64,000 nucleotides of DNA from Frigoribacterium endophyticum. GTDB taxonomy: Bacteria > Actinomycetota > Actinomycetes > Actinomycetales > Microbacteriaceae. The notes beneath the pieces are model-generated. The model saw only the letters and a program-made list of their open reading frames with translations. It was not told where the DNA came from and made no database searches. The translations under genes and the position numbers were made by a program. Of the stretch, positions 5,941-25,130 are shown in pieces; positions within the stretch are counted from its first letter, which is position 1; every line of letters begins with the position of its first letter. The stretch covers positions 1,054,001-1,118,000 of the forward strand of contig NZ_JAAOYV010000001.1 in the NCBI RefSeq assembly GCF_011759585.1, read 5' to 3'.

Positions 5941-6013
5941 GGGCCTTTAGCTCAGTTGGTAGAGCGCCACGTTTACACCGTGGATGTCGTCGGTTCGAGC
6001 CCGGCAGGGCCCA
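5941..6013 (+). tRNA. tRNA-Val (anticodon TAC)
   Basis: A full cloverleaf can be drawn by hand. The acceptor arms GGGCCTT/AGGGCCC pair with one G-T, the D stem is GCTC/GAGC, the anticodon stem CCACG/CGTGG carries loop TTTACAC (anticodon TAC, valine), and the T stem is GTCGG/CCGGC with loop TTCGAGC. No CCA is encoded. A TAGCAT at 5909-5914 could be the -10 box. The 3' part is the integration target of the neighbouring island. Confidence 0.97.
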
Positions 6014-6014
6014 C
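5964..6014 (+). repeat. left attachment-site copy (attL) in tRNA-Val
   Basis: These 51 bases run from the base before the anticodon stem to just past the discriminator base and are identical to 25079-25129. The bases on either side differ (A versus C before, T versus C after), which sets the repeat limits. The intact tRNA gene is preserved on this side. Confidence 0.92.
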
Positions 6015-6085
6015 TCTAGAAATTGCCGGTCAGAAGCCAGTCTTTGCGAAAGCAATGCCTTTTATACCGTTCGACAAGTATTCTC

Positions 6086-6105
6086 GTGTCGGTGTGGTGT
6101 TGGTG
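6086..6105 (+). repeat. 20-bp direct repeat near the left island end
   Basis: GTGTCGGTGTGGTGTTGGTG lies 72 bp inside the left tRNA end and recurs perfectly, same strand, at 24962-24981 near the right end. Being inside the island close to both attachment sites, it could be an integrase arm-binding site or the trace of a nested insertion. The rest of the gap 6014-6201 holds no gene that can be supported. Confidence 0.8.
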
Positions 6106-6201
6106 CTGGACGATCCACTGTCCTACGTCGTGGACGCCAATCGCATCTTGCTTGGGAGGACCCTCGCTCAGATCGTGGGTCTGGCTCCGGGGTTCCGCTG
6201 G

Positions 6202-7488
6202 TCAGTTCGGCTGAATGAGCTGCGGGCCGTGTCCTGGAGAGACAGAGCTCTGCAAGACCAGCGCTGCTGCTCCGATCGCGGCTGAGTCTCTCGGGTTGGT
6301 GGCCAACTCGACTCGGACGTCGTGCGACTGCCGAGCGAAGGCGCTCTCCATGAGACGTTCTCGGACGGCCCGGGCGTACACGGAACCCGCGACCGCGATG
6401 CTCGGACCGGAGAGCACGAGCCGGTCGACGTCGAGGACGTTGACGAACGACACGACGGCGGCGGCGAGATAGCGCGCGGACGTGGCGATCAAGCTCTCGG
6501 CGACAGGGTGCCCGCCCACAGCGGCGCGAGCCAGACGGTCGAAGTCTTGGGCAACGGTGTGATCCTCGAAGGCGAGTCCGAGGCCGGTCAAGCGTCCTGA
6601 CTGCTCACGGGCTTGGAGCAGGACGGCGGCGGGCGCCGCATAACGTTCCACGCATCCTCGGTTGCCGCAGAAGCATGGCTCGCCGTCGAGGTCGACCGAC
6701 GTGTGCCCGAGCTCGCCGGCGTTCGAGCTCGCACCGCGGTACAAGGCCCCGTCGATGATGATGCCGGCGCCGAGGCCCGTGCCCATGTAGATGCCGGCGA
6801 AGGTCTCGGTGCGGGGGACACGACGCGTCCAGAACTCGCCCACGGCCGCGGCCGCGGCGTCGTTGTCGATCAGGACGGGGACGTCGAGGCGTTCCGAGAG
6901 CCTGTCGCGGAGCGAGAAGCCCTCCCACCTGCGGAGCGTCGGCGAGCGGAGGATGGCACCGTGGTCGGCCGACAGCGGGCCGGGTGCGACCACGGCGACA
7001 CCAGCGATCGACGCCCGCGAGATGCCAGCGGCGTCGACGAAGGCGTCGAACTGCGCCACGAGGCGCTCGGTCACCTCGTCCGGCGAGTCGAGCGACGCAC
7101 CGTCCACGAGCTGCCGAGCAACGATCCCCCCTCCCGCACCCGTCGCCACGAAGGTCATCGACTCGAAACCGAGCTGGACGCCCACCGCGTAGAGGGCCCC
7201 AGGATTGATCTCGATGAGGGTCCGAGGCTTGCCGCCGCCCGAGGCCACCCGACCGCTTTCTCGCACGATGCCCTCGACGAGCAGCTTGCGGACGATGTTG
7301 GAGATGCTGGGCTGGGTCAGGCCGGTCGTCTCGGTCAGCTCGACCCTGCTGATGGGGCCGGACGAGCGGATGACATCGACGACGAGTGCCCTGCTGCCCG
7401 GCCCGGACGCGGAGGACTCGGGTCTGGCCACGTCGTCCTCCGCACCTCGGGCGAGCCCTGGTGTGGTGCTGGCCCGCGTCGGTGACAC
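6202..7488 (-). CDS. ROK-family transcriptional repressor
   Basis: A ROK regulator with a winged-helix domain (SRVELTETTGLTQPSISNIV, about residues 35-54 from this start) followed by a sugar-kinase-like fold that keeps the zinc motif CFCGNRGC and the GELGHTS segment. Such proteins repress sugar operons until a sugar or sugar phosphate binds. It is divergent from the LacI-like gene and the mannan operon, so beta-mannan or mannose control is likely. Three GTG starts are possible (7512, 7500, 7488). The last was chosen to limit overlap with the divergent promoter; it gives 428 residues. Confidence 0.85.
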   Translation of the reverse strand: MSPTRASTTPGLARGAEDDVARPESSASGPGSRALVVDVIRSSGPISRVELTETTGLTQPSISNIVRKLLVEGIVRESGRVASGGGKPRTLIEINPGALYAVGVQLGFESMTFVATGAGGGIVARQLVDGASLDSPDEVTERLVAQFDAFVDAAGISRASIAGVAVVAPGPLSADHGAILRSPTLRRWEGFSLRDRLSERLDVPVLIDNDAAAAAVGEFWTRRVPRTETFAGIYMGTGLGAGIIIDGALYRGASSNAGELGHTSVDLDGEPCFCGNRGCVERYAAPAAVLLQAREQSGRLTGLGLAFEDHTVAQDFDRLARAAVGGHPVAESLIATSARYLAAAVVSFVNVLDVDRLVLSGPSIAVAGSVYARAVRERLMESAFARQSHDVRVELATNPRDSAAIGAAALVLQSSVSPGHGPQLIQPN

Positions 7489-7545
7489 GATAGCGGTCAC
7501 GAGAGAGCGCACGGCACCATGATCGGGGCCGAGGAGGACGAAGCG

Positions 7546-8460
7546 ATGAGAGACGCGACCCTGGACGAGAGCGACAGTCCGTCGCGCCTCCCGCGGCCGA
7601 TCGGCCTGACCCTGGTGCGTCCCAGCGAGATCTACGGGGCCGAGCCGTACTTCCACGAGCTCACCGCCGGCCTCGACCGTGTCGTGCGGCCGCGGGGGCA
7701 TGCGGTCTTGCTCAGGGTCCTTCCTGACCGCGAGGCTGAACTCGACCTGTGCCGCCGGTGGTCGGCCGGGGGCGTCGTGGATGCCGTGGTGCTCGTCGAC
7801 CTGAGCGTGGACGACCCGCGCGTGTCCATGGTCGCCGAGCTCGACCTGCCTGCGATCTCGGTGTCATCACCCGCCATCTCGAGTGGGCTCCCGGCCGTCT
7901 GGACGAACGACGACGTCGCCGTCGAAGAGGCGGTGAATGCGCTGGCCTTGCTGGGCCACGTCCGTCTCGCCCACGTCAGCGGACCGCTGCGCCTCGCCCA
8001 CTCCGTCGCGCGCCGGGACACCTTCGTGTCGGTCTGCGACGATCGGGGGCTGATCGCGGCGACGGTGACGGGCGACTACTCGTTCGAGTCGGGCGAGCGA
8101 GCCCTCTCGGCACTACTCGACACCCAGGTCGACTCTGACGACCAAATCATCGAAAGCGCCCCGGCTGTTGTGACCGCAGTGGTCTTCGACAACGACCTCA
8201 TGGCGCTCGGCGGACTTGCAGAGGCACGACGCCGCGGTCTCAGCGTGCCCGGTGACCTCTCGCTCGTCGCATGGGACGACTCGGCCCAGTGCCAGCTCTC
8301 CGAGCCGCCGCTCTCCGCCCTCAGCCACGACGTCCAGCGCATCGGCGAGATGGTGGGCGAGACGGTCTTGGCCGTGCTCGACGGTCAGAGACCACCCACG
8401 CTCGAGGCACCGCCCATCGTCTTCGTGCCCCGGGCGACGACTGGCCCGCCCTCCCACTGA
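7546..8460 (+). CDS. LacI/GalR-type sugar-binding protein lacking the DNA-binding domain
   Basis: 304 residues that align in style with the effector-binding half of LacI regulators: IGLTLVRP near residue 18, AVVFDNDLMALGGLAEARRRG and VPGDLSLVAWDD late in the protein. The N-terminal helix-turn-helix and hinge expected before this domain are absent. There is no room for them upstream because the divergent ROK gene starts 58 bp away. The start ATG has GAGGAGG about nine bases upstream; an earlier ATG (7519) adds only nine residues. It could modulate the ROK repressor or be a degraded regulator. No signal peptide is seen, so it should act in the cytosol. Confidence 0.75.
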   Translation: MRDATLDESDSPSRLPRPIGLTLVRPSEIYGAEPYFHELTAGLDRVVRPRGHAVLLRVLPDREAELDLCRRWSAGGVVDAVVLVDLSVDDPRVSMVAELDLPAISVSSPAISSGLPAVWTNDDVAVEEAVNALALLGHVRLAHVSGPLRLAHSVARRDTFVSVCDDRGLIAATVTGDYSFESGERALSALLDTQVDSDDQIIESAPAVVTAVVFDNDLMALGGLAEARRRGLSVPGDLSLVAWDDSAQCQLSEPPLSALSHDVQRIGEMVGETVLAVLDGQRPPTLEAPPIVFVPRATTGPPSH

Positions 8461-8510
8461 CGCTCCGAGTGCGGCGCCACTCCGTCCCTCTCGCCCTCAT
8501 CCTCCGATCC

Positions 8511-8545
8511 ATTGTGCATAAATTAATAATCAAAGTCTTGACAGG
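8511..8545 (+). promoter_or_regulatory. AT-rich control segment before the mannan transport operon
   Basis: In the 199-bp gap before the binding-protein gene, this stretch is strikingly AT-rich for the genome (ATAAATTAATAATC at 8518-8531) and is followed by a perfect TTGACA at 8538-8543. The first part resembles the AT-rich sites that ROK repressors bind, and the second a sigma-70 -35 box, though no good -10 follows at normal spacing. Assignment to the ROK repressor is inference. Confidence 0.45.
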
Positions 8546-8659
8546 GCGCGACGCCGCGGGTGAAGCTGAGGCACCCGACCAGCTCGCACCCGCCGAGACC
8601 TGCCGGACAGAACGGCCGAGGCACCCCGCCGGCACCCACGAACGAAGGAGTTCGCACAC

Positions 8660-9955
8660 ATGAAGAAGACAGCACTCATGGGCATGGCGATGGTCTCGCT
8701 CACCGCGATCAGCCTGACCGGCTGCTCGTCCGCGTCCAACGACGACGGCGATCCCTCGGGCGAGATCACCGTGCTCACCAACCGCACCGACCTCGTCGAC
8801 ACCACCTTCGCCGACTACGCGAAGACGTTCGAGGACAAGTACCCGGGCACGAGCGTGAAGTTCGAGGCGCTGACCGACTACGAGGGCGACGTCAAGATCC
8901 GCCTGAACTCGAAGGACTACGGGGACGCGCTGCTCATCCCCAGCTCGAACGTCACGAAGGACCAGTACGCGAGCTTCTTCGAGCCCCTCGGCACGGTCGA
9001 CGAGATGAGCGAGAAGTACCGCTTCGTCGACGCCGGTGCCTACGACGGCCAGTCCTACGGCATCTCGACCTTCGGGTCAGCCATGGGCATGGTCGTCAAC
9101 AAGAAGGTCTGGGCCGCTGCCGGGATCACCGAGGCTCCGACCACACAGGAGGAGTACCTTACCGACCTCCAGGCGATCCGCGACTCGACAGACGCCGACC
9201 CTTACTACACGAACTACGCCGATGGCTGGCCCCTCGCTGCCATCGAGAACAACCTCGGGGCCACGCAGGGCCCGGACGTGCGCATGGAGATGGCCGCGGA
9301 CGACGCTCCGTGGACCGAGGGCACCGACCAGTACAAGATCGATGACCTGCTGTACCAGACAGTCGAGGCCGGCCTCAGCGAGGCCGACCCGACCACCACC
9401 AACTGGGAGGAGTCCAAGAACCTCCTCGCCCAGGGCAAGATCGGATCGATGGTGCTCGGCTCCTGGGCCGTCAGCCAGATGCAGGACGCCGCCGAGGCCG
9501 CTGGCGCATCGCGCGACGACATCGGCTTCTGGCCGATGCCGTGGCAGGTCGACGGGCAGTTCACCTCGGTGACCGCCAGCGACAAGGTCCTCGGTGTCAG
9601 CAAGAACAGCGACAACAAGGCGACCGCGAAGGCATGGGTCGACTGGTTCTCGAACGAGTCCGGCTACGCCGAGAGCCAGGGAGCCATCAGCCCCGTCAAG
9701 AGCGACCCCGAGCCCGACACCCTCGCCGACTTCTCCGCCCTCGACGTGCAGTACCTCGAACTGGCTCCCGACCCGGTCGGCAAGGAGGCACTTCTTACGG
9801 ACATCGCCAACGAGGCCGAGATCGACATCTTCGGCAACAGCTACAAGCAGAAGCTCATCGACACAGCCCGCGGCGCAGCCGACGGCGACGAGCAGTCGTT
9901 CTTCTCCGACCTCAACGACCGCTGGGCCGCAGCACAGGAGAAGGTCTCCGAATGA
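8660..9955 (+). CDS. CUT1 ABC transporter sugar-binding lipoprotein (mannan locus)
   Basis: A 431-residue family 1 extracellular solute-binding protein. The N-terminus is a lipoprotein signal ending in the lipobox LTGC (Cys near 22), so it is tethered to the outer face of the membrane. GAAGGAG precedes the ATG. It is followed with 4-bp overlaps by two permeases and then a beta-mannosidase, which suggests manno-oligosaccharides as ligands. That specificity is inferred from neighbours, not from binding residues. The operon has no ATPase, as is normal in Actinobacteria that share a MsiK-type ATPase. Confidence 0.9.
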   Translation: MKKTALMGMAMVSLTAISLTGCSSASNDDGDPSGEITVLTNRTDLVDTTFADYAKTFEDKYPGTSVKFEALTDYEGDVKIRLNSKDYGDALLIPSSNVTKDQYASFFEPLGTVDEMSEKYRFVDAGAYDGQSYGISTFGSAMGMVVNKKVWAAAGITEAPTTQEEYLTDLQAIRDSTDADPYYTNYADGWPLAAIENNLGATQGPDVRMEMAADDAPWTEGTDQYKIDDLLYQTVEAGLSEADPTTTNWEESKNLLAQGKIGSMVLGSWAVSQMQDAAEAAGASRDDIGFWPMPWQVDGQFTSVTASDKVLGVSKNSDNKATAKAWVDWFSNESGYAESQGAISPVKSDPEPDTLADFSALDVQYLELAPDPVGKEALLTDIANEAEIDIFGNSYKQKLIDTARGAADGDEQSFFSDLNDRWAAAQEKVSE

Positions 9956-10920
9956 CCCAGCTCGCCTCGCCTCCCGAGGTCGCGGCGACCGTCACCGACA
10001 AGGGCCAGCGCCGGGGCAAGCGCCCCGGCGCCGGCTCGGCCGGGCGCGTGGGCCGACGCGGCCTCCGCATCGCCCCGTGGCTCTTCCTGGCCGTGCCGCT
10101 GGCGTTCCTCATCGTCCTGACCTACGTGCCCGTCGCGAACCTCCTCTGGTACAGCGTCACCGACTGGGACGGCCTGTCGCCGGTCAAGGAGTTCGTCGGC
10201 CCCGAGAACTTCGTCGACATCTTCACCCGGCCCGAGATCTTCCAGGTCTTCTTCGTCAGCCTCTTCTACCTGGCCGGCGCCATCGCCCAGCTCGTCCTGG
10301 CCCTGTACTTCGCGACCCTCCTCAGCTTCAAGACCCGCTTCTCGAACCTGTTCAAGGGGATCATCTTCTTCCCGTACCTCATCAACGGGGTCGCGATCGG
10401 GCTCGTCTTCCTCTACTTCTTCCGCCCCGGCGGCACCCTCGACGCCCTCGCCGCCCTGGTCGGCGTCGAGAACACCCCGCAGTGGCTCGGCGACCCCGGC
10501 GTCGTCAACACCTCGCTAGCCGCGACGAGCGTCTGGCGCTACATGGGCCTGAACTTCGTGCTCTTCTTGGGCGCGATCCAGTCGGTGCCGTCCGAGCAGT
10601 ACGAGGCGGCCGACCTCGACGGCGCGACGTCCTGGCACAAGTTCCTCTACATCATCGTGCCCAGCATCCGACGCATCCTCGGCCTGTCGTTCATCCTCGC
10701 GATCGCCGGTGCCCTCTCGGCGTTCGAGATGCCGTACATCATGACCGGAGGCGCCAACGGGTCGGAGACGTTCGTCATCCAGACCGTCGACACCGCGTTC
10801 CGCTTCTCAAAAGTCGGCCTCGCCTCCGCCATGGCCGTCGTCCTGCTCATCATCGTGCTCGTCATCACAGCGGTGCAGCGGCTGCTGTTCCCGGACGAGA
10901 AAAAGGAGGACGCCTCGTGA
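9952..10920 (+). CDS. CUT1 ABC sugar permease, MalF type (mannan locus)
   Basis: 322 residues with a basic cytosolic N-terminus of about 35 residues followed by six predicted membrane segments. The EAA loop that docks the ATPase is visible as EAADLDGATSWHKF followed by PSIRRILG. The start ATG overlaps the stop of the binding protein (ATGA), indicating translational coupling. With the next permease it would form the heterodimeric channel for manno-oligosaccharides. Confidence 0.92.
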   Translation: MTQLASPPEVAATVTDKGQRRGKRPGAGSAGRVGRRGLRIAPWLFLAVPLAFLIVLTYVPVANLLWYSVTDWDGLSPVKEFVGPENFVDIFTRPEIFQVFFVSLFYLAGAIAQLVLALYFATLLSFKTRFSNLFKGIIFFPYLINGVAIGLVFLYFFRPGGTLDALAALVGVENTPQWLGDPGVVNTSLAATSVWRYMGLNFVLFLGAIQSVPSEQYEAADLDGATSWHKFLYIIVPSIRRILGLSFILAIAGALSAFEMPYIMTGGANGSETFVIQTVDTAFRFSKVGLASAMAVVLLIIVLVITAVQRLLFPDEKKEDAS

Positions 10921-11774
10921 CCAGCACCGCGTCGCTCACCCGCTCGCGCGCGCTCGCCCGCACCGGGACGATCGTCAAGTACGTCAGCCTCGTGCTCGCG
11001 TGCCTCGCGGCCCTCGTCCCGCTCGTCACCATCGTCATGCTCGCCTTCAAGACGGACGACGAGTACCGGACCACGGCCCCGCTCAGCCCGCCCGGCAACT
11101 GGCTCAACCTCGACAACTTCGTCACCGCCTTCACCCAGGGCGGCATGCTGATGGGCTTCGTCAACACGGGGATCATCCTCGTCGTCTCCGTCGTCGGGAC
11201 CATCCTGATCGGCACGATGGCCGCCTACGCCATCGACCGGTTCCGGTTCCGCGGCCGGAAGCTCGTGCTCGGAGGGTTCCTGCTCGCGACCCTCGTGCCG
11301 TCGGTCACGACGCAGGTCGCGACCTTCCAGGTCATCAGCGCCCTCGACCTCTTCAACACCCGCGGCGCGGCGATCCTCATCTTCATGGGAACCGACATCG
11401 TCGCGATCTACATCTTCCTGCAGTTCATGCAGTCGATCCCCGTCTCGCTCGACGAGGCGGCGATGCTCGACGGCGCGAGCCGCTTCACCGTCTACTGGCG
11501 GATCGTCCTGCCGCTGCTCAAGCCGGCCATCGCGACGGTGGTCATCATCAAGGGCATCGCGGTCTACAACGAGTTCTACATCCCCTTCCTCTACATGCCC
11601 TCGCAGGACCTCGGCGTCATCTCGACCTCCCTGTTCCGCTTCATGGGCCCCTTCGGCGCGCAGTGGGAGGTCATCGCGGCAGGCACGCTGCTCGTGATCA
11701 TCCCCACCCTCATCGCCTTCCTCTTCCTCCAGCGATACATCTACAACGGCCTCACGGCAGGAGCCACCAAGTGA
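10917..11774 (+). CDS. CUT1 ABC sugar permease, MalG type (mannan locus)
   Basis: 285 residues, six predicted membrane helices, EAA motif EAAMLDGASRFTVYWRIVLP. The GTG start overlaps the previous stop (GTGA) and the stop overlaps the next GTG start, so the three transport genes and the mannosidase form one tightly coupled transcript. Second half of the importer. Confidence 0.92.
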   Translation: MTSTASLTRSRALARTGTIVKYVSLVLACLAALVPLVTIVMLAFKTDDEYRTTAPLSPPGNWLNLDNFVTAFTQGGMLMGFVNTGIILVVSVVGTILIGTMAAYAIDRFRFRGRKLVLGGFLLATLVPSVTTQVATFQVISALDLFNTRGAAILIFMGTDIVAIYIFLQFMQSIPVSLDEAAMLDGASRFTVYWRIVLPLLKPAIATVVIIKGIAVYNEFYIPFLYMPSQDLGVISTSLFRFMGPFGAQWEVIAAGTLLVIIPTLIAFLFLQRYIYNGLTAGATK

Positions 11775-14269
11775 CCACCACCTTCCCCACCACCGCGACC
11801 GAGACTCGCCGCCCGCTCCACGACGGCTGGTCCGTCCGCTCGACCCGCGGCCCGGTGCCCGCCGACATCGCCTCGGCGACCGTCCCCGCCACGGTGCCCG
11901 GCCTCGTGCACACCGACCTGCTCACCGCCGGCCTCATCCCCGACCCCTACCTCGACCGCAACGAGCAGAAGGTCACCTGGATCGGCGCGAGCGACTGGCA
12001 GTACCGCACCACGTTCTCGTGGAGCCCCGACGGCCACGACCGTCACGACCTCGTGTTCGAGGGCCTCGACACCGTCGCCACGGTCACCCTCAACGGCACC
12101 GAGCTGGCACGCACCGTCAACCAGCACCGCACCTACCGCCTCCCGGCCGACGGGGTGCTCGTCGACGGAGACAACGACCTCGTCGTCGACTTCGCCTCGC
12201 CCGTCGCCTACGCCGACCAGGCCAGCCTCGACATCGGTTACCGGCCGCACACCTACTCCCACCCCTTCAACGCCATCCGCAAGGCGGCCTGCAACTTCGG
12301 TTGGGACTGGGGCCTCGACGCGGCCTCCTCGGGCATCTTCAAACCCGTCACCCTGCACTCCTGGTCGGGCGCCCGCGTCGAGAGCGTCCGCCCCGTCGTG
12401 ACGACCGACGGAGGCGCGGGCCACGTCCGCGCCCACGTCACGATCGAGAGGGCGGCCGGCTCCGACGCCGCGCTGACAGTCTCCGGCCTCGTGGCGAGCC
12501 CCGACGGAGCCGAGGCCGCGACGGCCAGCGTCGACGTCGCCCCGGGCGCGACCGAGGCCGTCGTCGACCTCGACGTCGACGACGTCGCGCTCTGGTGGCC
12601 TCGCGGCCACGGCGACGCCGTCCTCTACGGCCTCGCCGTCGACCTCGTCGTCGACGACCAGCCCGCAGCCGCCTGGTCGAGCCGCATCGGATTCCGCACG
12701 GTCGTCGTCGAGCTCGAGCCCGACTCCGAGGGCACCAGCTTCCGCGTCGTGGTCAACGGCCAGCCGGTGTGGACGAGGGGCGCGAACTGGATCCCCGACG
12801 ACGCCTTCGTCACGCGTGTCACCCGCGACCGCGTCGCCGCCCGCCTCGACCAGGCCGAGTTCGCGAACATGAACCTGCTGCGCGTCTGGGGCGGCGGCTA
12901 CTACGAGTCCGATGACTTCTACGAGCTGTGCGACGAACGCGGCATCATGACCTGGCAGGACTTCCTCTTCGCCTGCGCTTCCTACGCCGAGGAGGAGCCG
13001 CTCCGCAGCGAGGTCGAGGCCGAGGTCCGAGACAACGTGACGCGCCTCATGTCCCACCCGAGCCTGGTGCTCTGGAACGGCAACAACGAAAATATCTGGG
13101 GCTTCGAGGAGTGGGGCTGGGAGAAGCGCCTCCAGGGTCGCACCTGGGGCCTGGGCTACTACCTCGACCTGCTGCCACGCCTCGTCGCCGAACTCGACCC
13201 CGAGCGGTCCTACACGCCGGGCAGTCCCTGGTCGGGCGACCCCGAACGGCCGGCGAACGAGATCGAGCACGGCTCGGTGCACCTCTGGGAGCTGTGGAAC
13301 CGCGTCGACTACCCGCACTACCGCGACACCGTGCCCCGTTTCGTCGCCGAGTTCGGCTGGCAGGGCCCCGCGACCTGGTCCACGATCCAGCAGTCGATCT
13401 CCGACTCGCCCCTGACGCCCGAGTCGCCCGGCATGATCTGGCACCAGAAGGCGACCGACGGCAACGACAAGCTGACCGACGGCCTCGTCGCGCACCTCCC
13501 GCTGCCTGACGACACCGAGGACTGGCACTGGGCGATGTCGCTGAACCAGGCCCACGCGGTCGCCTTCGCCATCGAGCACTGGCGGTCGTGGAGCCCCACC
13601 ACGATGGGGTCGATCGTCTGGCAGCTGAACGACTGCTGGCCCGTCACCTCGTGGGCCGCCGTCGACGGCTACGGACGCGCCAAGCCGCTGCTCTACGCCC
13701 TCAAGCACGTCTACGCCGACCGCCTCGTCACGATCCAGCCGCGCGGCGACGACCTCGTCGCCGCCGTCTCGAACGACTCGCCCGAGGCGTGGGAGGCGCA
13801 GGTCGTCCTCCAGAGGCTCTCCTACGAGGGCGAGGTGCTCGCCTCCGCGACGGTCGACCTGGCGCTCGACGCCCGCACCACCACCACGGTCGCGATCCCC
13901 GCCGAGGTCGCCGCCTTCGGCGATCCCGCCCGCGAGCTGATCGTCGCCACGGTCGGTGCCGAGCGGGGGCTGTGGTTCCCGGTCGAACAGCGTGACTCGG
14001 CCCTGACCGCCGCCGACCTGACGACGGTCGTGACCGCGGTCGACGGCGGCTACGACGTCGTGGTGACCAGCGCCTCCTTGGCTCGCGACGTGACGCTGCT
14101 CGTCGACAAGGTCGACGTGCACGCCGTCGTCGACGACATGATGGTCACCCTGCTGCCCGGGGAGTCCGTGACGTTCCGCGTGAGCAGCGATGCCGACCTC
14201 ACCCCCGAGCAGCTGACCTCGGCGAGCGTGCTCCGCACGTCGAACCAGCTCGTCGTCGACTGGGCCTGA
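11771..14269 (+). CDS. beta-mannosidase, GH2 family
   Basis: An 832-residue exo-glycosidase that releases mannose from the non-reducing ends of imported manno-oligosaccharides. The N-terminal jelly-roll region has VPGLVHTDLLTAGLIPDPYL and WIGASDWQY, characteristic of GH2 beta-mannosidases rather than beta-galactosidases. The acid/base Glu is in WNGNNE (about residue 440) and the nucleophile Glu in AEFGWQG (about 527). No signal peptide is present, so it works in the cytosol on what the adjoining transporter brings in. The GTG start overlaps the permease stop. Confidence 0.94.
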   Translation: MTTTFPTTATETRRPLHDGWSVRSTRGPVPADIASATVPATVPGLVHTDLLTAGLIPDPYLDRNEQKVTWIGASDWQYRTTFSWSPDGHDRHDLVFEGLDTVATVTLNGTELARTVNQHRTYRLPADGVLVDGDNDLVVDFASPVAYADQASLDIGYRPHTYSHPFNAIRKAACNFGWDWGLDAASSGIFKPVTLHSWSGARVESVRPVVTTDGGAGHVRAHVTIERAAGSDAALTVSGLVASPDGAEAATASVDVAPGATEAVVDLDVDDVALWWPRGHGDAVLYGLAVDLVVDDQPAAAWSSRIGFRTVVVELEPDSEGTSFRVVVNGQPVWTRGANWIPDDAFVTRVTRDRVAARLDQAEFANMNLLRVWGGGYYESDDFYELCDERGIMTWQDFLFACASYAEEEPLRSEVEAEVRDNVTRLMSHPSLVLWNGNNENIWGFEEWGWEKRLQGRTWGLGYYLDLLPRLVAELDPERSYTPGSPWSGDPERPANEIEHGSVHLWELWNRVDYPHYRDTVPRFVAEFGWQGPATWSTIQQSISDSPLTPESPGMIWHQKATDGNDKLTDGLVAHLPLPDDTEDWHWAMSLNQAHAVAFAIEHWRSWSPTTMGSIVWQLNDCWPVTSWAAVDGYGRAKPLLYALKHVYADRLVTIQPRGDDLVAAVSNDSPEAWEAQVVLQRLSYEGEVLASATVDLALDARTTTTVAIPAEVAAFGDPARELIVATVGAERGLWFPVEQRDSALTAADLTTVVTAVDGGYDVVVTSASLARDVTLLVDKVDVHAVVDDMMVTLLPGESVTFRVSSDADLTPEQLTSASVLRTSNQLVVDWA

Positions 14270-14271
14270 CG

Positions 14272-15240: not shown

Positions 15241-15300
15241 CACCAGGCCGCCCGACCGGGGCGCCCTGATCACCGCACAGCCGAAGGAGCCTGAGCACCC

Positions 15301-19208: not shown

Positions 19209-19239
19209 CTCGAACCACGCCCGGCATCGGGCATGAGAA

Positions 19240-19270
19240 GGGCGTCGGCGCGCGATGCGCCGACGCCTTT
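19240..19270 (+). terminator. rho-independent terminator of the mannan operon
   Basis: An 11-bp perfect stem (GGCGTCGGCGC, 19241-19251, with 19257-19267), a 5-base loop and TTT, 32 bp after the GH26 stop. Confidence 0.85.
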
Positions 19271-19440
19271 CCTCTCCTGCGGCACTTGCGATGCGACTCG
19301 CCCCATGCGCCCCGGCTCCAAGTGCTTTGGCGAGTGTTCCGTGCGCCGGCGCGCTCAGCTGGAGACGCGGCAGAGTGCTCGAGGTCCGGGTCCGACCGTG
19401 CCGGCCCGGCACCGTGTCCCTCCTGCTGACTGACTCGCAA

Positions 19441-19590: not shown

Positions 19591-19898
19591 AAAGGATGCC
19601 GGCGGTCTTGCCCGACCACGAACAGCTGGCTCCCGTCCGGCTGCCGGCTGTGCAGCGTTCGGCCAAGGTCGCATCTCAGTGAGCCGTGTCTCACCGTCGG
19701 CGCCGACGCGGCCATACGTCTTCGACACGCGACCGGTCTGGGCCAGTTCGAGGCTGTAGAACTCGTTCGAGTTCGCCTTCGTGTCGTCGTCATGCCTATC
19801 CCATGAGCGGCATGAGGTCGTCAGCTTCCGTAGATGGCGGCGCGGCGAAACGGTGTTGAACAGGTCTCAGCGACTCGTTGTGGATAGCATCGCGACTC
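19591..19898. other. intergenic stretch, no supported gene
   Basis: Between the sorting-signal remnant and the SHOCT gene, short frames exist on both strands but none has a ribosome site, a family motif or convincing codon use. It marks the passage from the mannan locus to the AT-richer right part of the island. Confidence 0.5.
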
Positions 19899-20957
19899 GT
19901 GACCACTTCGATCGATGACCTGGCGCCCCAGGATGAGTTCAAGTCGGGCGCGGAGACCATGCGCCTGACTGACGACGGTCTGGTGATGCACTTTACGGGC
20001 ATGCTCACGCAGACCGTCCGCAAGAAGGCCTCTCCCTACGAGGTGCCTTTCGAGTCAATCGAGACCATCGACTACACGCCGTCGTCGAACTGGAAGCCCG
20101 GGTTCATCACCTGGCAGCTCGTGGGGGACGACAACCCGCAGCCAAAGCCGGAGTACAACGTCAACGCGTTCATCATCCAAAACAGCGCCCGTGGGCCGAA
20201 GGCCGAGGAGTTGCAGGCTGAGTGGCTAGGGCTGGCCAATCGGCTGGTGGCCCAGGTCGCGGAGGCTCGCGACGTCGACCCGAGTCTGGTCATGAGCCCC
20301 CGTTTCGGCAGAACAGCAACGGCGGCGGAAGTCGCGAGCGACAAGCTCGTCGTCAAGACGACGAAGGTCGAGGCGAAGGCCGTTGTCGTCGAAGAGAAGA
20401 AGGCTGAGAAGGCGCGCATCGCTGCCCTCACCGGCGCGAGTCAGTTCACCTTCTTCGAGATGTTCGGCACCTTGCACGTCTTTTCCAACGAGGTGTGGAA
20501 GGGCAAGCCTCACGGCCCTGGATCGGTTGGAGGTTCCCTGGCCGGTGCGATCGCCGAAGTGAGTACAGAGGGCCACCTCCAGCAGCGCCTGACGCTGACG
20601 CGCATGTTCGTGCTCGGCCCCATCGCGCTAGCCGCACCGAAGCAGACCGGAAACCAGAAGTTCGTCTTGCACATCTCCGGCGAGGACTACGACATCCAGT
20701 ACATCCCGTCCGGGAAGACGCCGAGTTACAACCAGCTGGCCAAGGCCGCCCAGTTCATCAACAATCAGTCGCGGAAGCTCAAGCCGATGCTGACCGAAGA
20801 GCCGTCGGTGGCGCCGACGGTCCTAGTCTCCTCGACGCCACGAAAAGCGGAGGCGACCCTGGCTGAGCAGCTCCGTCAGCTGGCAGCGCTTCGCGACGAC
20901 GGGATACTCACCGAGGACGAGTTCACGGCCAAGAAGACGCAGCTGCTGGGGCTGTAA
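19899..20957 (+). CDS. hypothetical protein with C-terminal SHOCT domain
   Basis: 352 residues. The N-terminal 100 residues resemble DUF4429/PH-like domains (DGLVMHFTGMLTQTV, VPFESIETIDYTP), the middle holds a Lys/Glu/Ala-rich stretch and a second beta-rich region, and the end (AEQLRQLAALRDDGILTEDEFTAKKTQLLG) is a SHOCT domain, a short helical pair common in proteins from mobile elements and membrane-associated oligomers. GTG at 19899 was preferred over an upstream TTG; neither has a strong ribosome site. No signal peptide or membrane segment is seen. Function unknown. Confidence 0.75.
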   Translation: MTTSIDDLAPQDEFKSGAETMRLTDDGLVMHFTGMLTQTVRKKASPYEVPFESIETIDYTPSSNWKPGFITWQLVGDDNPQPKPEYNVNAFIIQNSARGPKAEELQAEWLGLANRLVAQVAEARDVDPSLVMSPRFGRTATAAEVASDKLVVKTTKVEAKAVVVEEKKAEKARIAALTGASQFTFFEMFGTLHVFSNEVWKGKPHGPGSVGGSLAGAIAEVSTEGHLQQRLTLTRMFVLGPIALAAPKQTGNQKFVLHISGEDYDIQYIPSGKTPSYNQLAKAAQFINNQSRKLKPMLTEEPSVAPTVLVSSTPRKAEATLAEQLRQLAALRDDGILTEDEFTAKKTQLLGL

Positions 20958-20967
20958 ACGGCCCCGT

Positions 20968-21351
20968 TCACGCAGCCAGCCCGTGCGCGTCACGGTCGCG
21001 CGACAGCGCAGGCAGCGCCTTCGGCAGGATGGCCTCGGACACGGCCTCGTCCATGGACGCCTCGAGGGGCTGCTTGAAGCGGCCGAGCAGCTGACGGAGG
21101 GTTCCGTTCGGCAGGAGCTCAGCGTTGGCGATGAGCTCGGAGCCTCGGTAGACGCCGAGGGGGTAGGAGCGGTGGTCGACGGCGACGGCACCGTACGAGA
21201 GACGGTCGACCAGCGCGTCCATGGCTTCCCCGACCTCGCCACCCCGGAGCGGCTCTTGCGTTCGACGAGGTCATGGGTTTCGATGAGGATGTGGCTGCCC
21301 ATGAACAGGCGTCGTTCCACGAAGTGGGTCGTCGAGGGCGGGGGTGGTCAT
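20968..21351 (-). pseudogene. frameshifted small hypothetical gene after the CoiA-like gene
   Basis: An ATG two bases after the CoiA-like stop opens MTTPALDD, which runs into a stop after 26 codons. The next frame reads HFVERRLFMGSHILIETHDL then RKSRSGVARSG, and the original frame resumes with EAMDALVDRLSYGAVAVDHR to the stop at 20968. Removing one C from the CCC run (complement of 21326-21328) and adding one G to the GGGG run (complement of 21228-21231) restores one 127-residue reading frame. These are two compensating homopolymer indels: real decay or sequencing error. If the upstream part is ignored, an 84-residue ORF (20968-21222) remains. Function unknown. Confidence 0.6.
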
Positions 21352-21353
21352 GG

Positions 21354-22385
21354 TCACGTGTCTGCTCCAAGGTCGGTGGGCGCTTCGCGTAGTTCATGCG
21401 CGGCAGCGCCACCGTGACCGCCGTGCTGCGCCACCTCGCCGTCACCGTAACCAAGGTCCTCCGCGACCGCCCTGGCCCTGGTCGCTTGCGAGTAGGACGC
21501 ATCGAGGTACGTCCGGAAGTTGTGCGCCACAGCCAGGGGTGGCAGCTGTCCCCAGCCCCAGCGTGCAGGGTCGGCAGCGCTGGCGGAGTTGCGTGCAGCT
21601 ATTCGCTGGCGCCTTGCCTCAGCATCTGCTTCCTTCTTGGTTTTTCGGGCGGCCTCAGCAGCGTCAAGTTTCGCCATGAGGGCCTCTTGCTGGGCTGCCT
21701 CAGCAGCAGCGCGTGCCTCCTCCTCTGCAATCCACAGCTCCCAGGCGTGCTTTGTGCGTGGCCTGTCGAGCCGGTTGCGAAGGGCTGCATCGACCCAGTC
21801 GGCCATGAGGACGTAGCGGGTCGCAATCAGGTCGGTGGCGACCTTCTCATCGCCGCGCTCCAGGTGGTAGATCGGCACGTACCCAGCTTCGAGCGCTACG
21901 TCGGCGTTCCTTGTCAGCCAGAGCGAGCGCGTGTTCGGCACAACGGTCCGAAGGTCCTGCCGGCGCCGATACTCCTCCGCGCCTTGGGACGAGACTTGCA
22001 CCTCGAAGACGACCCGCTGCCCGGTGTTGGGGTGAACTGCGAGCACGTCCGGTATGTGGTCGGGGCGGTCCTTGCCGCTCTTGCCGGCCTCAGCCTCGGC
22101 GTCCCAGCCGAGGCGCCGGGACTCGAAGACGAGCGTGTCTTTCAGCGCCAAGTGAGACTCGGACTCGCCAGCCCACCGGCAAGTGGCCTTCTCCTTCGCG
22201 AAGTGAGCGAAGTGGTAGCGGAGGCGTCCTCCTACCGACTTCGACCTGATGAACACGCGGTGCTCGCAGAACGGATGGACGAGGGTTCTAGACTCCTCAG
22301 CCTTGGACCGGACCTGGTCGACGTTGTGCCGACTGATCTGGGCACGGTCGATGCGTTCGCCGTCCCAGTAAGCGTGCAGGCTCAT
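21354..22385 (-). CDS. CoiA-like competence/nuclease family protein
   Basis: 343 residues. The N-terminal part has the CoiA pattern of HFAH followed by a Cys and ESESHLALKDTL; the nuclease-like core is PDHIPDVLAV then VVFEVQVSSQ (Asp and Glu-x-Gln of the restriction-like fold, about residues 110-130). The C-terminal third is a long Ala/Glu/Arg-rich helix, probably coiled coil. CoiA aids DNA processing in competent Firmicutes; in Actinobacteria such genes often sit in islands and their role is unproven. GGGGAGG precedes the ATG by four bases. The following decayed gene starts two bases after its stop. Confidence 0.75.
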   Translation of the reverse strand: MSLHAYWDGERIDRAQISRHNVDQVRSKAEESRTLVHPFCEHRVFIRSKSVGGRLRYHFAHFAKEKATCRWAGESESHLALKDTLVFESRRLGWDAEAEAGKSGKDRPDHIPDVLAVHPNTGQRVVFEVQVSSQGAEEYRRRQDLRTVVPNTRSLWLTRNADVALEAGYVPIYHLERGDEKVATDLIATRYVLMADWVDAALRNRLDRPRTKHAWELWIAEEEARAAAEAAQQEALMAKLDAAEAARKTKKEADAEARRQRIAARNSASAADPARWGWGQLPPLAVAHNFRTYLDASYSQATRARAVAEDLGYGDGEVAQHGGHGGAAAHELREAPTDLGADT

Positions 22386-22406
22386 CTGCCCTCCCCAGGC
22401 GGGAGC

Positions 22407-22553
22407 CTAGGTCGGGCCACCGACACTCGGGCAGCCCCTCAGGAGGGGCCAGAACATGACGGCGCCGACGACGATCGGCAAAACCGTCGCGCCGACAAGC
22501 GTGGCCGCGAGGGAAACAGTCATCCGGCGGCGGGTCTTCGTGGACAGCATCAT
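22407..22553 (-). CDS. small membrane protein, 48 residues
   Basis: A short reading frame starting MMLSTKTRRRMTVSLAATLV with a basic N-terminus, one membrane helix and a short tail (FWPLLRGCPSVGGPT). GGAGG sits five bases before the ATG, the best ribosome site in this part of the island. It lies just upstream of the CoiA-like gene on the same strand, so it may be the first gene of that transcript. Its start resembles the protein at 23490-23591. Function unknown. Confidence 0.6.
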   Translation of the reverse strand: MMLSTKTRRRMTVSLAATLVGATVLPIVVGAVMFWPLLRGCPSVGGPT

Positions 22554-22720
22554 CGTGGCCTCCTGGTGGTGCGTTGATGCCAGGAGGCATGTGGCGCGGT
22601 CGGGCGCTCACGGCATGCCGGTCGACCGAAACGTGACGCGAGCAGGTGAGCGAGCCGACAGTAGTGGCAGTCGGTGCCGGAGGCGGAATCGCTACTTGAC
22701 GGTTTGGACGGGCTCGGTGG

Positions 22721-23437
22721 TCAGCTTCCGAGCTGACGACGGATGGGGGCCGGTGCCGGAGGCTGCCGAGGTGTGAAGACTCGCGCCAACTCCGCTGTCG
22801 TCTCCTCGGTGAGGAGGGCGGGATTCACCTCGAGCAGGCGCCGGATACGGGCTACGAACTCACCCGGCGTCATCTGGGTGGCGGCGCTTCCTTCCGGCAG
22901 GGCCGTGTCGTCGACGATGCGGGCGTTCGTGAGGATCCGCCGCTGCTCGTCGGCGAAGGAGCCAGCAGCAGCCATCGCGTGGAAGCGCTGCTCCCACTCC
23001 TGCCCGCTCATGCTGAGTTCGGGGTCCGTCACCGCCAGTTCAACGCCCTCAGTGGAGACCACGAACGTCGCAAGCCGCGGTGGTCGACCGTCGGCGCCGA
23101 CGGCCTTCTTCGTCCGGCGAGGCGACGACATGCGCTTCCAGATGGCACGGGCGGACGGAAGAGCTCGCTCGTGCCAGAACCGCGCGATGATCGGCAGTGA
23201 GGCGACGATGCCGGCGAGCATCAGCTCCGCCATCAAGGCGATCGCTTCGAGTTCTTCCTTCGTGAGTTCCGGCGACTGAGGTGCCTGCGAGTAGCTAGGC
23301 GTGTCCTCGACGTACTCCCAGTCAGCGTGGTCGACGAGGTTGCCGTCCGCGTCGAAGAGGTGCCCCTTGAAGGCGCCGTCGACGCGTCGTGAGGAGCCGA
23401 GGTGAAGTCCCTCAGGGACGATGGGGACGAAGGGCAT
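22721..23437 (-). CDS. hypothetical protein, 238 residues
   Basis: No family recognised. The N-terminus MPFVPIVPEGLHLGSSRRVD suggests a short beta region, followed by an acidic stretch and a hydrophobic helix near 66-85 (EAIALMAELMLAGIVASLPI) that could be a membrane segment. Then comes a basic patch (SSPRRTKK) and a mostly helical C-terminal half with WEQRFHAMAAAGSF. No ribosome site is visible, but TAGTGT about seven bases before the ATG could be a -10 of a leaderless transcript. Codon use is less GC-biased than outside the island. Confidence 0.6.
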   Translation of the reverse strand: MPFVPIVPEGLHLGSSRRVDGAFKGHLFDADGNLVDHADWEYVEDTPSYSQAPQSPELTKEELEAIALMAELMLAGIVASLPIIARFWHERALPSARAIWKRMSSPRRTKKAVGADGRPPRLATFVVSTEGVELAVTDPELSMSGQEWEQRFHAMAAAGSFADEQRRILTNARIVDDTALPEGSAATQMTPGEFVARIRRLLEVNPALLTEETTAELARVFTPRQPPAPAPIRRQLGS

Positions 23438-23489
23438 GCTGCGACACTACTGGCCGCGAGCAGTCCTCACGAAGTCGGGGGTGGCGGGC

Positions 23490-23591
23490 CTAGTAGACCG
23501 CGTCGAGCACGAGGCCACCGACGAGGCCGGCCAGGCCAAGGACGGCGCCGGTGACGGTGAGGCGCTTCCGGGTGCGGGGAGTCATCATCAT
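23490..23591 (-). CDS. tiny membrane protein, 33 residues
   Basis: The frame reads MMMTPRTRKRLTVTGAVLGL followed by AGLVGGLVLDAVY: basic N-terminus and one membrane helix. The first 14 residues parallel the protein at 22407-22553 (MM, Thr/Ser, TR-K/R-R, TV), suggesting paralogues. The ribosome site is weak (GGGAC), and the remaining gap on either side (23438-23489, 23592-23772) holds nothing else that can be supported. Function unknown. Confidence 0.45.
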   Translation of the reverse strand: MMMTPRTRKRLTVTGAVLGLAGLVGGLVLDAVY

Positions 23592-23772
23592 GCGAGTCCC
23601 ATGCGCGGCAGCCGCCGAAGTGGTCAGACGCCGAGTCGGTGCCGGACGCTGATCGAGTTGGCGTGGACGGTTGCCGGGCGGGGCACCTCGCCGAGGACTC
23701 GGTGGAAGAGGCTGACACCGCTCGATGACCGGAAGAGCTCTGCGCGGCGCTCGGCGGGTGACGCGCTGAGCG

Positions 23773-24078
23773 GTGTGGTCTCGCCGAGGTGTCCTCGAGC
23801 GTGACAACCGCACTTGCGCCTACTGCGTAAGCAGCCGCTTCGGCACGACGCTAGACCACATCATGCCCGAGAGCCGGCTCACGCGAGTCGAGGCGGACAC
23901 GTGGCTCAACACCATCGCCGCCTGCCTCAGGTGCAACGGCATCAAGGCCCACCGCACCCCGGAGGAGGCCGGCATACCGCTGCTCTTCCATCCACGGGAA
24001 ATCACCGCGAGGGACACACTCCTCGTGGCCGTCACCGCTACCGGCGCCGACGTCGTCGCCCTGGGCCTCGTCGCCTAG
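23773..24078 (+). CDS. HNH endonuclease-family protein, N-terminally short
   Basis: 101 residues with the full HNH core: RRGVLERDNRTCAYC, LDHIMPESR and NTIAACLRCNGIKAHRTPEE, giving two CxxC zinc knuckles around the His-Asn-His metal site. Homologues usually carry 60-70 more N-terminal residues; here an in-frame TGA sits just before the GTG start. It is therefore either a short variant or a truncated gene. No ribosome site is obvious. Neighbours on the right are a GIY-YIG protein and the island end. Confidence 0.7.
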   Translation: MWSRRGVLERDNRTCAYCVSSRFGTTLDHIMPESRLTRVEADTWLNTIAACLRCNGIKAHRTPEEAGIPLLFHPREITARDTLLVAVTATGADVVALGLVA

Positions 24079-24109
24079 GAGCGGCCTTCGGTCGCTCTAG
24101 GCTCACGTC

Positions 24110-24646
24110 ATGGAGTGGACACGCGCAGGGCTGACGGCGGCAGGCTTCCACGGCTTCGTGCCCTTCGCGGACCTGCCGGCGTCGCCCGTCCCGCCTGGCG
24201 CCGGCACCTACGTCGTCGTCCGACCTGACGCGGGACCGCCTGTCTTCCTCGAGGCGAATGCCGGCCGTGCGGTGCCCGGCCGCCGGCACACCGAACCTGT
24301 CACGACCCTCGAAGCGGCATGGGTCACTGGCGCTGAGGTCATGTACATCGGCAAGGCCGACCTCGGCTCGAAGGGCGACCGAGGCATCGCCAAGCGGCTC
24401 GATGAGTACCGGCTCCACGGTGCAGACCTCGGCGGCAGCCACAACGGTGGCCGCTACCTGTGGCAGCTCCGAGACAGCGCCGCCCTGCTCGTGGCCTGGC
24501 AAGAGAGCGCCGACGCCCGCGCCACCGAGACAGAGATGCTCGACCACTTCATCGACCAGTTCGGCAAGCTCCCCTTCGCCAACCTCACGAACGGCCGCGG
24601 ATCCCGGCACAGCCGCAGCCGTCCGCCTCGCGTAGGAGAGGCGTGA
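24110..24646 (+). CDS. GIY-YIG nuclease-family protein
   Basis: 178 residues. The GIY-like strand is GTYVVVRP (about 33-40), the YIG strand is VMYIGKADLG (about 77-86), followed by Arg in AKRLDEYR, Glu in TETEMLDHF and Asn in FANLTNG, the usual order of catalytic residues. GGRYLWQLRDSAALLVAWQE before the Glu is shared by small free-standing GIY-YIG proteins. It starts 31 bp after the HNH gene on the same strand, so the two may be co-transcribed. Cellular role unknown. Confidence 0.72.
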   Translation: MEWTRAGLTAAGFHGFVPFADLPASPVPPGAGTYVVVRPDAGPPVFLEANAGRAVPGRRHTEPVTTLEAAWVTGAEVMYIGKADLGSKGDRGIAKRLDEYRLHGADLGGSHNGGRYLWQLRDSAALLVAWQESADARATETEMLDHFIDQFGKLPFANLTNGRGSRHSRSRPPRVGEA

Positions 24647-25078
24647 ACACGCGACAGGTGATGGACAGCCCTTCGGTCGGGGGATATGGCGCGTGACTCA
24701 TCGTGGCTGGCCTGGGTGGGCCGTCTACATGTGTCATCGGTGGGCCGCCCCAGGGGAACCCGTTCGCAGATCGCCGTGGTCCACCAACTTCGACGGACCC
24801 TGTCACCAGTTAGCCCCTGCGAGAAGTCGTGACGATGAACACGAACAGAATGACAGTCGACGACGCAAGTGTCGCCAACTCGCTCACGACCGCGCTCTTA
24901 CTTGGTCTTGCTGAGACCGAGGACATGCACGGGCCCAGTCTCCGTGCACAGTTCCAGCTTTGTGTCGGTGTGGTGTTGGTGACGGGCTGCGCAACACTGC
25001 TTTCCCTTGCACGCAGTTGCGCTCCTGGCCCCAGAAAACCGGCAGTTCTGCGCAACTAGCGGCAAGAACAAATGCTCC
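24647..25078. other. right end of the island, no firm gene
   Basis: 432 bp before the right attachment site. An ORF at 24838-25059 (73 residues, MNTNRMTVDDASVANSLTTA...) has no ribosome site or family and is doubtful. The region holds the second copy of the 20-bp repeat (24962-24981) and three copies of GCGCAAC: 24989-24995, inverted at 25016-25022, and 25050-25056. These may be recombinase or excisionase binding sites rather than coding sequence. Confidence 0.5.
24962..24981 (+). repeat. 20-bp direct repeat near the right island end
   Basis: Second perfect copy of the sequence at 6086-6105, same orientation, 97 bp before the right attachment copy. Confidence 0.8.
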
Positions 25079-25129
25079 GCGCCACGTTTACACCGTGGAT
25101 GTCGTCGGTTCGAGCCCGGCAGGGCCCAC
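25079..25129 (+). repeat. right attachment-site copy (attR), partial tRNA-Val
   Basis: A 51-bp perfect duplicate of the tRNA-Val 3' part, including the anticodon arm, T arm and acceptor 3' strand. The sequence upstream does not supply an acceptor 5' strand or D arm, so it is not a functional tRNA. Confidence 0.92.
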
Positions 25130-25130
25130 C

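What the first reader, a model, noticed from the sequence alone, without database searches (positions are those of the whole stretch)
5964..25129. Mannan-degradation island inserted in tRNA-Val with no visible integrase
The sequence shows 51-bp perfect direct repeats of tRNA-Val 19,115 bp apart. Everything needed for beta-mannan use (two mannanases, importer, mannosidase, kinase, regulators) lies between them. Islands of this type normally carry an integrase beside the tRNA, but the genes next to both ends are a ROK regulator and a region without firm genes. A whole carbohydrate niche appears to have been gained in one step.
Basis: partly seen in the sequence, partly recalled or inferred. Interest (0 to 1): 0.85.

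Follow-up and report, generated by a model that had tools for sequence, protein, structure and literature searches.

The report
Mannan genes in decayed megaplasmid remnant
A set of genes for eating plant mannan sits between the two leftover ends of a very large DNA element that apparently once inserted into a tRNA gene of this bacterium and has since lost nearly everything else, including the enzyme that inserted it.

Summary
In detail: a perfect 51-bp copy of the 3' part of tRNA-Val(TAC) lies 19,115 bp downstream, with no integrase between. The repeats look like true attachment-site ends: an identical 20-bp arm motif accompanies each (6086-6105, 24962-24981). Among 16 genus genomes (Frigoribacterium, by titles of three relatives) the motif occurs in three, twice each, always bounding an element at tRNA-Val. 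Two of those elements carry 78%-identical tyrosine integrases. One is 356 kb, has an empty site in a near-identical relative, and is related to free actinobacterial megaplasmids. The window's right part (19.7-25.1 kb) is a collinear patchwork of that element with large gaps and truncated genes. So the 'island without integrase' is most likely a decayed remnant with both att sites (CIME-like).

The mannan genes (6.2-19.4 kb) are a separate 13-kb module present in four other species: twice beside tRNA-Arg, once at tRNA-Val without a repeat, once just outside an integrase-bearing element. Its transport and GH2 genes are 92-96% identical to those species, whose chromosomes are 82-85% identical in a small sample. 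One-step acquisition with this insertion is unproven; how the module came to lie inside the att sites is open. Known kind, well resolved, with an unusual parent.

The parts
5941..6014 (+). tRNA-Val(TAC), intact; its 3' 51 nt (5964-6014) form the left copy of the core repeat (attL)
6015..6195 (+). left end of the element; arm motif GTGTCGGTGTGGTGTTGGTG at 6086-6105
   Evidence: same arrangement in the G007 and G005 left ends, but outside the motif and a short stretch next to the tRNA the similarity is low
6196..19361 (.). mannan-use module, a discrete 13-kb unit homologous in G007 (6200-19361), G002 (6195-19208), G001 (split over contigs) and, in part, G010
6202..7701 (-). ROK-family regulator with MarR-like HTH; the module's left edge is at its stop codon (start site uncertain)
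   Evidence: junctions
7519..8460 (+). LacI-type periplasmic-binding-like regulator domain (Peripla_BP_3); no HTH found by Pfam in this ORF
8660..9955 (+). extracellular solute-binding protein of the ABC importer
   Evidence: SBP_bac_1
9955..10920 (+). ABC permease (domain at residues 251-452 of ORF 9541-10920; start uncertain)
   Evidence: BPD_transp_1
10930..11774 (+). probable second ABC permease (inferred from position and reading frame; not scanned on its own)
   Evidence: inference; conserved 96-97% in G007, G010, G002, G001
11800..14269 (+). GH2 beta-mannosidase (start uncertain)
   Evidence: Glyco_hydro_2 domains, Ig_mannosidase
14272..15240 (+). ROK-family sugar kinase
15301..18201 (+). 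GH5-like glycoside hydrolase with CBM11
18240..19208 (+). GH26 mannanase (start uncertain)
19688..19785 (-). remnant of the mega-element: first codons of a 434-aa gene of G005 (2300727-2300824), rest missing
19899..20957 (+). SHOCT-domain protein, no counterpart found in the G005 element (origin unknown)
20968..21327 (-). remnant of a gene of 447 aa in G005 whose plasmid relatives are annotated as PcfJ-domain proteins; two fragments joined at 21199 with an internal deletion
21354..22385 (-). CoiA-like protein (343 aa; 52% identical to the G005 counterpart)
   Evidence: (E 0.051, below cut-off)
22721..23437 (-). 238-aa protein of unknown function, 99% identical in the G005 element
23773..24078 (+). 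HNH endonuclease; residues 9-80 match the G005 element (81%), starting near a deletion joint (23775-23800), so a cut 5' end is likely but not shown
24110..24646 (+). 178-aa protein, GIY-YIG-like by eye (no Pfam hit), 92% identical in the G005 element
24962..25078 (+). right end of the element; arm motif at 24962-24981
   Evidence: 94.6% identical to the G007 right end, repeat included
25079..25129 (+). right copy of the 51-bp core (displaced tRNA-Val 3' part, attR)

Best explanation
The 19.1-kb interval is the decayed remnant of a large tyrosine-integrase element of the integrated-megaplasmid kind that inserts at tRNA-Val(TAC). The element restored the tRNA on insertion and left a 51-bp copy at its far end. 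Illegitimate deletions then removed the integrase, the VirB4-like ATPase, replication genes and more than 95% of a G005-like parent, but both ends (core plus arm site) survived, so it now fits a CIME (cis-mobilizable element): probably immobile on its own and excisable only if a related integrase is supplied in trans or a relative integrates beside it. Inside it lies a separately mobile 13-kb mannan-use module (two mannanases, ABC importer, beta-mannosidase, ROK kinase, two regulators) that spreads between Frigoribacterium species independently of these ends. Shown: the repeats, the arms, the homologous integrase-bearing elements, the empty/filled pair in another species, the collinear patchwork with truncated genes, and the module's presence at different sites. 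Inferred: direction (deletion rather than insertion), present immobility, horizontal spread (from identities), and that the genes serve beta-mannan uptake and use. Unknown: whether the module rode in on the element or was brought inside it later.
For: Arm motif (up to one mismatch): 3 of 16 genus genomes, two sites each, all at the ends of tRNA-Val elements; reversed-pattern control 0 of 16. Left and right ends aligned in G000, G007 and G005. Integrases of G007 and G005 are 78% identical; none matches the window, and the third PF00589 protein of G000 is 25-27% identical to them, the other two being Xer-like (inferred: found in all 16 genomes). Filled/empty pair: the G004 flank after tRNA-Val is 98.1% identical over 9,485 bp to the G005 flank after its partial copy, 356 kb away from its tRNA. 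Seven window segments between 19,688 and 25,129 match G005 in order and on one strand at 80-95%, with truncated genes and two clean joints of about 0-2 bp overlap. The G007 40-kb element is likewise collinear with other parts of G005. The G005 element is megaplasmid-like: the eight best plasmid relatives of its VirB4-like ATPase and of its DnaE are the same eight plasmids of 375-608 kb, and it has 17 tRNAs plus a tmRNA. In other genera 4 of 6 arm-motif sites lie beside a tRNA-Val(TAC) gene or partial copy. Module transport/GH2 genes 92.4-95.6% against backbone 82.5-85.4%.
Against: No held genome shows the empty site of this island: alignments of 19362-26600 in the 15 relatives run at most a few bases past the core at tRNA-Val (for 14 of them). 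The left 180 bp match other left ends only in the arm and a short stretch next to the tRNA. The SHOCT gene and 19.36-19.69 kb have no counterpart found in G005. The mannan module is absent from the G005 element, so the parent is not exactly G005-like. Some size differences could be insertions in G005 rather than deletions here. The VirB4-like name rests on eye and plasmid relatives: no Pfam hit, relatives annotated only 'ATP-binding protein' where annotated, and all 17 plasmid records predicted non-mobilizable. Horizontal spread is less clear for G001, whose regulator genes are only 81.3% identical, about the backbone level. The arm motif also occurs at two family sites (G332, G292) with no tRNA-Val core within the 3-kb loci.
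Confidence: 0.84

Rival explanations
1. The mannan module was true cargo of the integrating mega-element: it entered this lineage on a ~300-kb element, which was then pruned to its ends plus the useful genes.
For: The module lies inside the arms. G005 also has ~63 kb of metabolic and iron-uptake genes (by-eye annotation) between its left arm and its integrase. Module and element segments both show high identity between species with about 84% backbone identity.
Against: In none of the 4 other carriers is the module inside such an element: G001, G002 and G010 have no arm motif and in G007 it lies outside the pair. The plasmid relatives of its GH26 seen (8 rows of 18 records) are not on the megaplasmids of this lineage.
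Confidence: 0.35
2. The module was brought to a resident decayed element by homologous or illegitimate recombination of chromosomal DNA, tRNA-Val being a shared hotspot; the repeats have nothing to do with its arrival.
For: G010 and G007 hold the module beside tRNA-Val outside any att-bounded element; regulator genes of G000 are closest to G007 (95.5%), then G010 (91.4%); module edges fall at gene ends.
Against: No homologous flank shared by G000 and G007/G010 was found to the right of the module.
Confidence: 0.45
3. A still mobile integrative element whose integrase sits elsewhere in the genome (trans-mobilised island).
For: Both att ends with arms are present.
Against: The own genome has only three PF00589 hits, two in groups found in all 16 genomes (Xer-like, inferred) and one 25-27% identical to the cognate integrases; serine recombinases were not searched. 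The VirB4-like ATPase is found in 1 of 16 genomes (G005) and not in this one.
Confidence: 0.08
4. The far repeat is an ancestral tRNA pseudogene or a chance or assembly artefact.
For: None beyond the fragment being partial.
Against: Perfect 51-bp identity, matched arms in three species, and the filled/empty pair in G005/G004.
Confidence: 0.02

Closest known systems
CIME (cis-mobilizable element; decayed ICE/IME with attL and attR)
   Same: Both att sites kept; integration genes lost, no transfer gene recognised. Definition read as a passage in PMC5704250.
   Different: The parent here looks like an integrated megaplasmid of about 300 kb or more rather than an ICE or IME; cis-mobilisation was not tested.
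Actinobacterial megaplasmids (pCPAA3 of Curtobacterium pusillum, plasmids of Arthrobacter, Pseudarthrobacter and Paenarthrobacter; more distantly pMP7017-type plasmids of Bifidobacterium)
   Same: The G005 parent-type element shares the VirB4-like ATPase (43-50% identity; 27-28% for Bifidobacterium) and DnaE (43-50%), and like pMP7017 has tRNAs and a tmRNA; pCPAA3 is reported to have a tmRNA and DNA polymerase III subunits (passages).
   Different: Chromosomally integrated at tRNA-Val with its own tyrosine integrase; the window copy keeps only a few genes.
Beta-mannan polysaccharide-utilisation loci of Actinobacteria (category recalled)
   Same: GH26 and GH5-like enzymes, GH2 beta-mannosidase, ABC importer, ROK kinase. 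GH5 and GH26 mannanases of Frigoribacterium are mentioned in passages of PMC12823222.
   Different: Here the module sits between integrative-element ends and occurs at two different tRNA loci across species.

Membership tests
CIME (cis-mobilizable element) | attL and attR retained | tested here: met
   51-bp core copies plus one arm motif at each end, as in integrase-bearing relatives; function of the sites not assayed
CIME (cis-mobilizable element) | integration genes lost | tested here: met
   No PF00589 in the window; cognate integrases do not match the window
CIME (cis-mobilizable element) | transfer genes lost | tested here: inconclusive
   VirB4-like ATPase of the parent type absent from this genome and no transfer family among the window ORFs scanned by Pfam, but its name is uncertain, some remnant proteins have no family, and other transfer genes were not searched one by one
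CIME (cis-mobilizable element) | derives by decay from an integrative element | tested here: met
   Collinear remnants with truncated genes against the G005 element; insertions in G005 not wholly excluded
CIME (cis-mobilizable element) | can be excised or mobilised by a related element | not testable with these tools
   Needs a laboratory excision assay
Autonomous ICE / genomic island with integrase | functional integrase within the element | tested here: not met
   (tyrosine type; serine type not searched)
Integrated megaplasmid lineage (parent type, G005) | replication, transfer and tRNA gene backbone of Micrococcales megaplasmids | tested here: inconclusive
   For the G005 parent-type element the two genes tested point to the same eight plasmids and a tRNA/tmRNA array is present; in the window only the PcfJ-like remnant has plasmid relatives restricted to Curtobacterium, 3 records
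Beta-mannan utilisation locus | endo-mannanase(s), beta-mannosidase, importer and kinase in one cluster | tested here: met
   substrate specificity not assayed

The most novel reading that the evidence does not exclude
A lineage of very large (about 300 kb or more) integrating megaplasmids targets tRNA-Val(TAC) across Microbacteriaceae, delivers or traps catabolic modules at the site, and repeatedly collapses by deletion to little more than its two att ends plus the selected genes. The window is a late stage of this cycle, with mannan use as the retained gain and both ends still ready for remobilisation.
Probability: 0.3. Interest if true: 0.68.

Novelty: new member of a known kind. Interest (0 to 1): 0.5.

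Why it matters
It replaces 'an island that moved without an integrase' by a traceable series at one tRNA: a 356-kb element with its integrase and an empty-site partner, a 40-kb relative that keeps the integrase, and this 19-kb remnant without it. It shows how niche genes can end up at a tRNA after the vehicle is gone, and it separates the history of the mannan module from that of the vehicle. The shared arm motif gives a simple sequence signature for finding further remnants: 4 of 6 hits outside the genus lay at tRNA-Val(TAC).

Tried and rejected
Rejected: an ancestral tRNA pseudogene or chance repeat. Rejected: a recognisable integrase in the gene-poor right part; the genes there are weakly CoiA-like, HNH and unknowns. 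Rejected: the idea that the genome's third integrase (C2:1136562) is cognate (25-27% identity). Not established: an empty site for this very island. The right flank was not found after tRNA-Val in the relatives (for all 15, query to 26,600; for 14 of them, query to 32,000), and in G009 genes resembling window 56.5-64 kb begin about 5.5 kb after the tRNA, so the whole 6-56 kb region looks variable. No tRNA-Arg repeat was found at the far end of the module in G002 (only a 37-bp, 86% match close by). The 124-bp right end was searched in 398 family genomes and found in 1 (this genome); G005 and G007 were not among the genus members listed for that sample. Plasmid searches with two window proteins did not tie them to this lineage: the 238-aa protein had no match, and the CoiA-like protein had 26 records with weak partial matches, mostly Aeromonas. 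Literature: 7 searches. Nothing listed describes this element, but most listed papers were seen only as search listings. PMC12823222 was read as passages and one section (that section on its ten genomic islands does not name mannanases), PMC5704250, PMC10832533 and PMC8929003 as passages.

Dropped before counting: matches under 28 nt or 78% identity (G000) and under 60 nt or 72% (G007), gene hits under 60% of gene length (so G010 kinase and GH26 and L083 GH5 are missing from the trees), pieces under 70 nt or at or below 70%. The module trees have weak support at several nodes, so only the identities are used. Gene calls in G005, G007, G336 and others come from a codon-usage script of mine, and names there are by eye unless a Pfam, PADLOC or BLAST call is cited. 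The backbone identity rests on only ~2.6 kb of alignment (Xer-like gene region plus peroxiredoxin).

Full report
OBSERVATION. The window holds tRNA-Val(TAC) at 5941-6014 and a perfect 51-bp copy of its 3' part at 25079-25129, 19,115 bp downstream. It is not chance: the longest exact match of the tRNA gene downstream is 51 nt, against a maximum of 16 in 200 Markov simulations. No PF00589 integrase lies in the window; the genome has three, elsewhere.

THE ENDS LOOK LIKE ATTACHMENT SITES. Three elements in three species end the same way. Next to the tRNA there is a short similar stretch, then a 20-bp arm motif starting about 71 nt inside the left end. On the right the same motif, in the same orientation, starts 117 nt before the partial tRNA copy. 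Searched with up to one mismatch, the motif occurs in 3 of 16 genus genomes, exactly twice in each, always at these ends; the reversed control pattern gave none in 16. In 398 family genomes it occurs in 6. Outside this genome that makes six sites in five genomes. Of these, 4 of 6 lie beside tRNA-Val(TAC) or a partial copy of it (G336, G287, G350 twice); the other two (G332, G292) have no such core within the 3-kb loci.

THE INTEGRASE. The G007 and G005 elements carry tyrosine integrases that are 78% identical to each other; that of another tRNA-Val element, G013, is 43-44% identical. Related integrases (E at or below 1e-60) occur in 14 of 398 family genomes. Of the 12 loci fetched, 5 have tRNA-Val(TAC) within the locus (one of the five is G013 of this genus); three have a tRNA-Met or tRNA-Ser, one has other tRNA-Val genes among four tRNAs, and three have none. 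The window genome has no such integrase.

THE PARENT. In G005 the tRNA and the partial copy are 356 kb apart. In G004, which is 100.0% identical to G005 (rounded) over the 2.6-kb backbone sample, the sequence right after tRNA-Val matches the G005 sequence right after its partial copy (98.1% over 9,485 bp): a filled/empty site pair. The 356-kb region encodes a VirB4-like ATPase (no Pfam hit; named by eye and from its plasmid relatives, which are annotated only as ATP-binding proteins where annotated, and predicted non-mobilizable), DnaE, ribonucleotide reductase, type I CRISPR-Cas proteins, a T2SSE-type ATPase and a UmuC-like polymerase, and 17 tRNAs with a tmRNA. The eight best plasmid relatives of the ATPase and of DnaE are the same eight Curtobacterium, Arthrobacter, Pseudarthrobacter and Paenarthrobacter plasmids of 375-608 kb. 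Papers on such plasmids report a tmRNA (PMC10832533, passage) and DNA polymerase III subunits on pCPAA3 (PMC8929003, passage).

THE WINDOW ISLAND IS A REMNANT. Window segments 19688-19785, 20968-21199, 21199-21327, 21327-21449, 21861-23775, 23800-24652 and 24962-25129 match G005 in order and on one strand at 80-95%, while the corresponding G005 gaps reach about 46 and 130 kb. Two clean joints (21199, 21327) overlap by about 0-2 bp. The PcfJ-like gene and a 434-aa gene are truncated here but open over their full length in G005, while a 238-aa protein is 99% identical. The G007 40-kb element is collinear with other parts of G005. The VirB4-like ATPase is found in 1 of 16 genomes, G005. The simplest account is deletion, though some of the differences may be insertions in G005.

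THE MANNAN MODULE HAS ITS OWN HISTORY. It spans about 6195-19361 and occurs in 5 of 16 genus genomes including this one; the other genomes give only weaker matches to parts of it. In G001 and G002 its left edge lies about 130 and 245 bp after tRNA-Arg(ACG). In G010 it follows tRNA-Val directly, with no repeat or arm motif and with the kinase and GH26 genes largely gone. In G007 it starts just beyond the right end of the 40-kb element. Over the solute-binding, permease and GH2 genes the identity to G000 is 95.2% (G007), 95.3% (G010), 95.6% (G002) and 92.4% (G001); over the two regulators it is 95.5, 91.4, 88.8 and 81.3%. The backbone sample gives 84.5, 84.0, 85.4 and 82.5%. So most of it has moved between species, less clearly so for the G001 regulators, and not always with this vehicle.

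HOW IT MOST LIKELY WORKS. A large element inserted at tRNA-Val by its integrase and restored the tRNA. Deletions removed the integrase and most of the element. The ends persist, so a related integrase could in principle still excise the interval (inferred, untested). The module supplies secreted mannanases, uptake, beta-mannosidase and kinase for beta-mannan (inferred from families). Whether it rode in on the element or arrived later is undecided.

VERDICT. By the definition read in PMC5704250 (passage) it is a CIME-type remnant, with loss of transfer genes only partly tested: a new member of a known kind, with an unusual parent.

Noticed in passing
G005:C1:2114483-2470929 (loci L044, L195-L209, L069, L077, L043): A 356-kb chromosomally integrated megaplasmid-like element with integrase, VirB4-like ATPase, DnaE, ribonucleotide reductase, type I CRISPR-Cas proteins, 17 tRNAs and a tmRNA.
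   Followed up: partly
G005 element, for example 2125791, 2141935, 2159133, 2165543, 2274167, 2388475: At least ten otherwise different proteins share an N-terminal motif like HPRxxxGTFTDKxQTAPExxL (seen by eye; two more), possibly a common sorting or transfer signal.
   Followed up: no
G350:C18 (locus L233) 4476-6666: A roughly 2-kb interval bounded by both arm motifs, tRNA-Val(TAC) and a diverged partial copy, in which my gene caller found only two genes, metabolic-looking by eye: a possible extreme remnant in another genus.
   Followed up: partly
G007:C1:388186-399634 (locus L046): The 40-kb G007 element carries QatA and QatC matches and type I restriction genes, plus a PDC-S53 candidate defence gene.
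   Followed up: partly
window 25130-56500: Further sugar-use and uptake genes (rhamnose-type, GH42-like, ABC importers; by eye) follow the island; in G009 genes resembling window 56.5-64 kb start about 5.5 kb after the tRNA, so this stretch may be a second variable region.
   Followed up: no
window 25896-26137: A stretch just right of the island matches, at 75-79%, places in several relatives and also one inside the G005 mega-element (2179584-2179821); meaning unknown.
   Followed up: no
window 19255-19590: Small ORF whose C-terminus looks like a cell-wall anchor tail (by eye), perhaps a fragment left at the module's right edge.
   Followed up: no
G010:C1:496218-505100 (loci L051, L068): The mannan module of G010 is decaying: kinase and GH26 genes are largely deleted.
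   Followed up: partly
window 5964-6014 and 25079-25129: Both repeat copies carry the two-base tRNA-Val variant shared with G002 and not with the other 13 relatives whose loci were compared (G014 was not); its meaning for the origin of the element is open.
   Followed up: no
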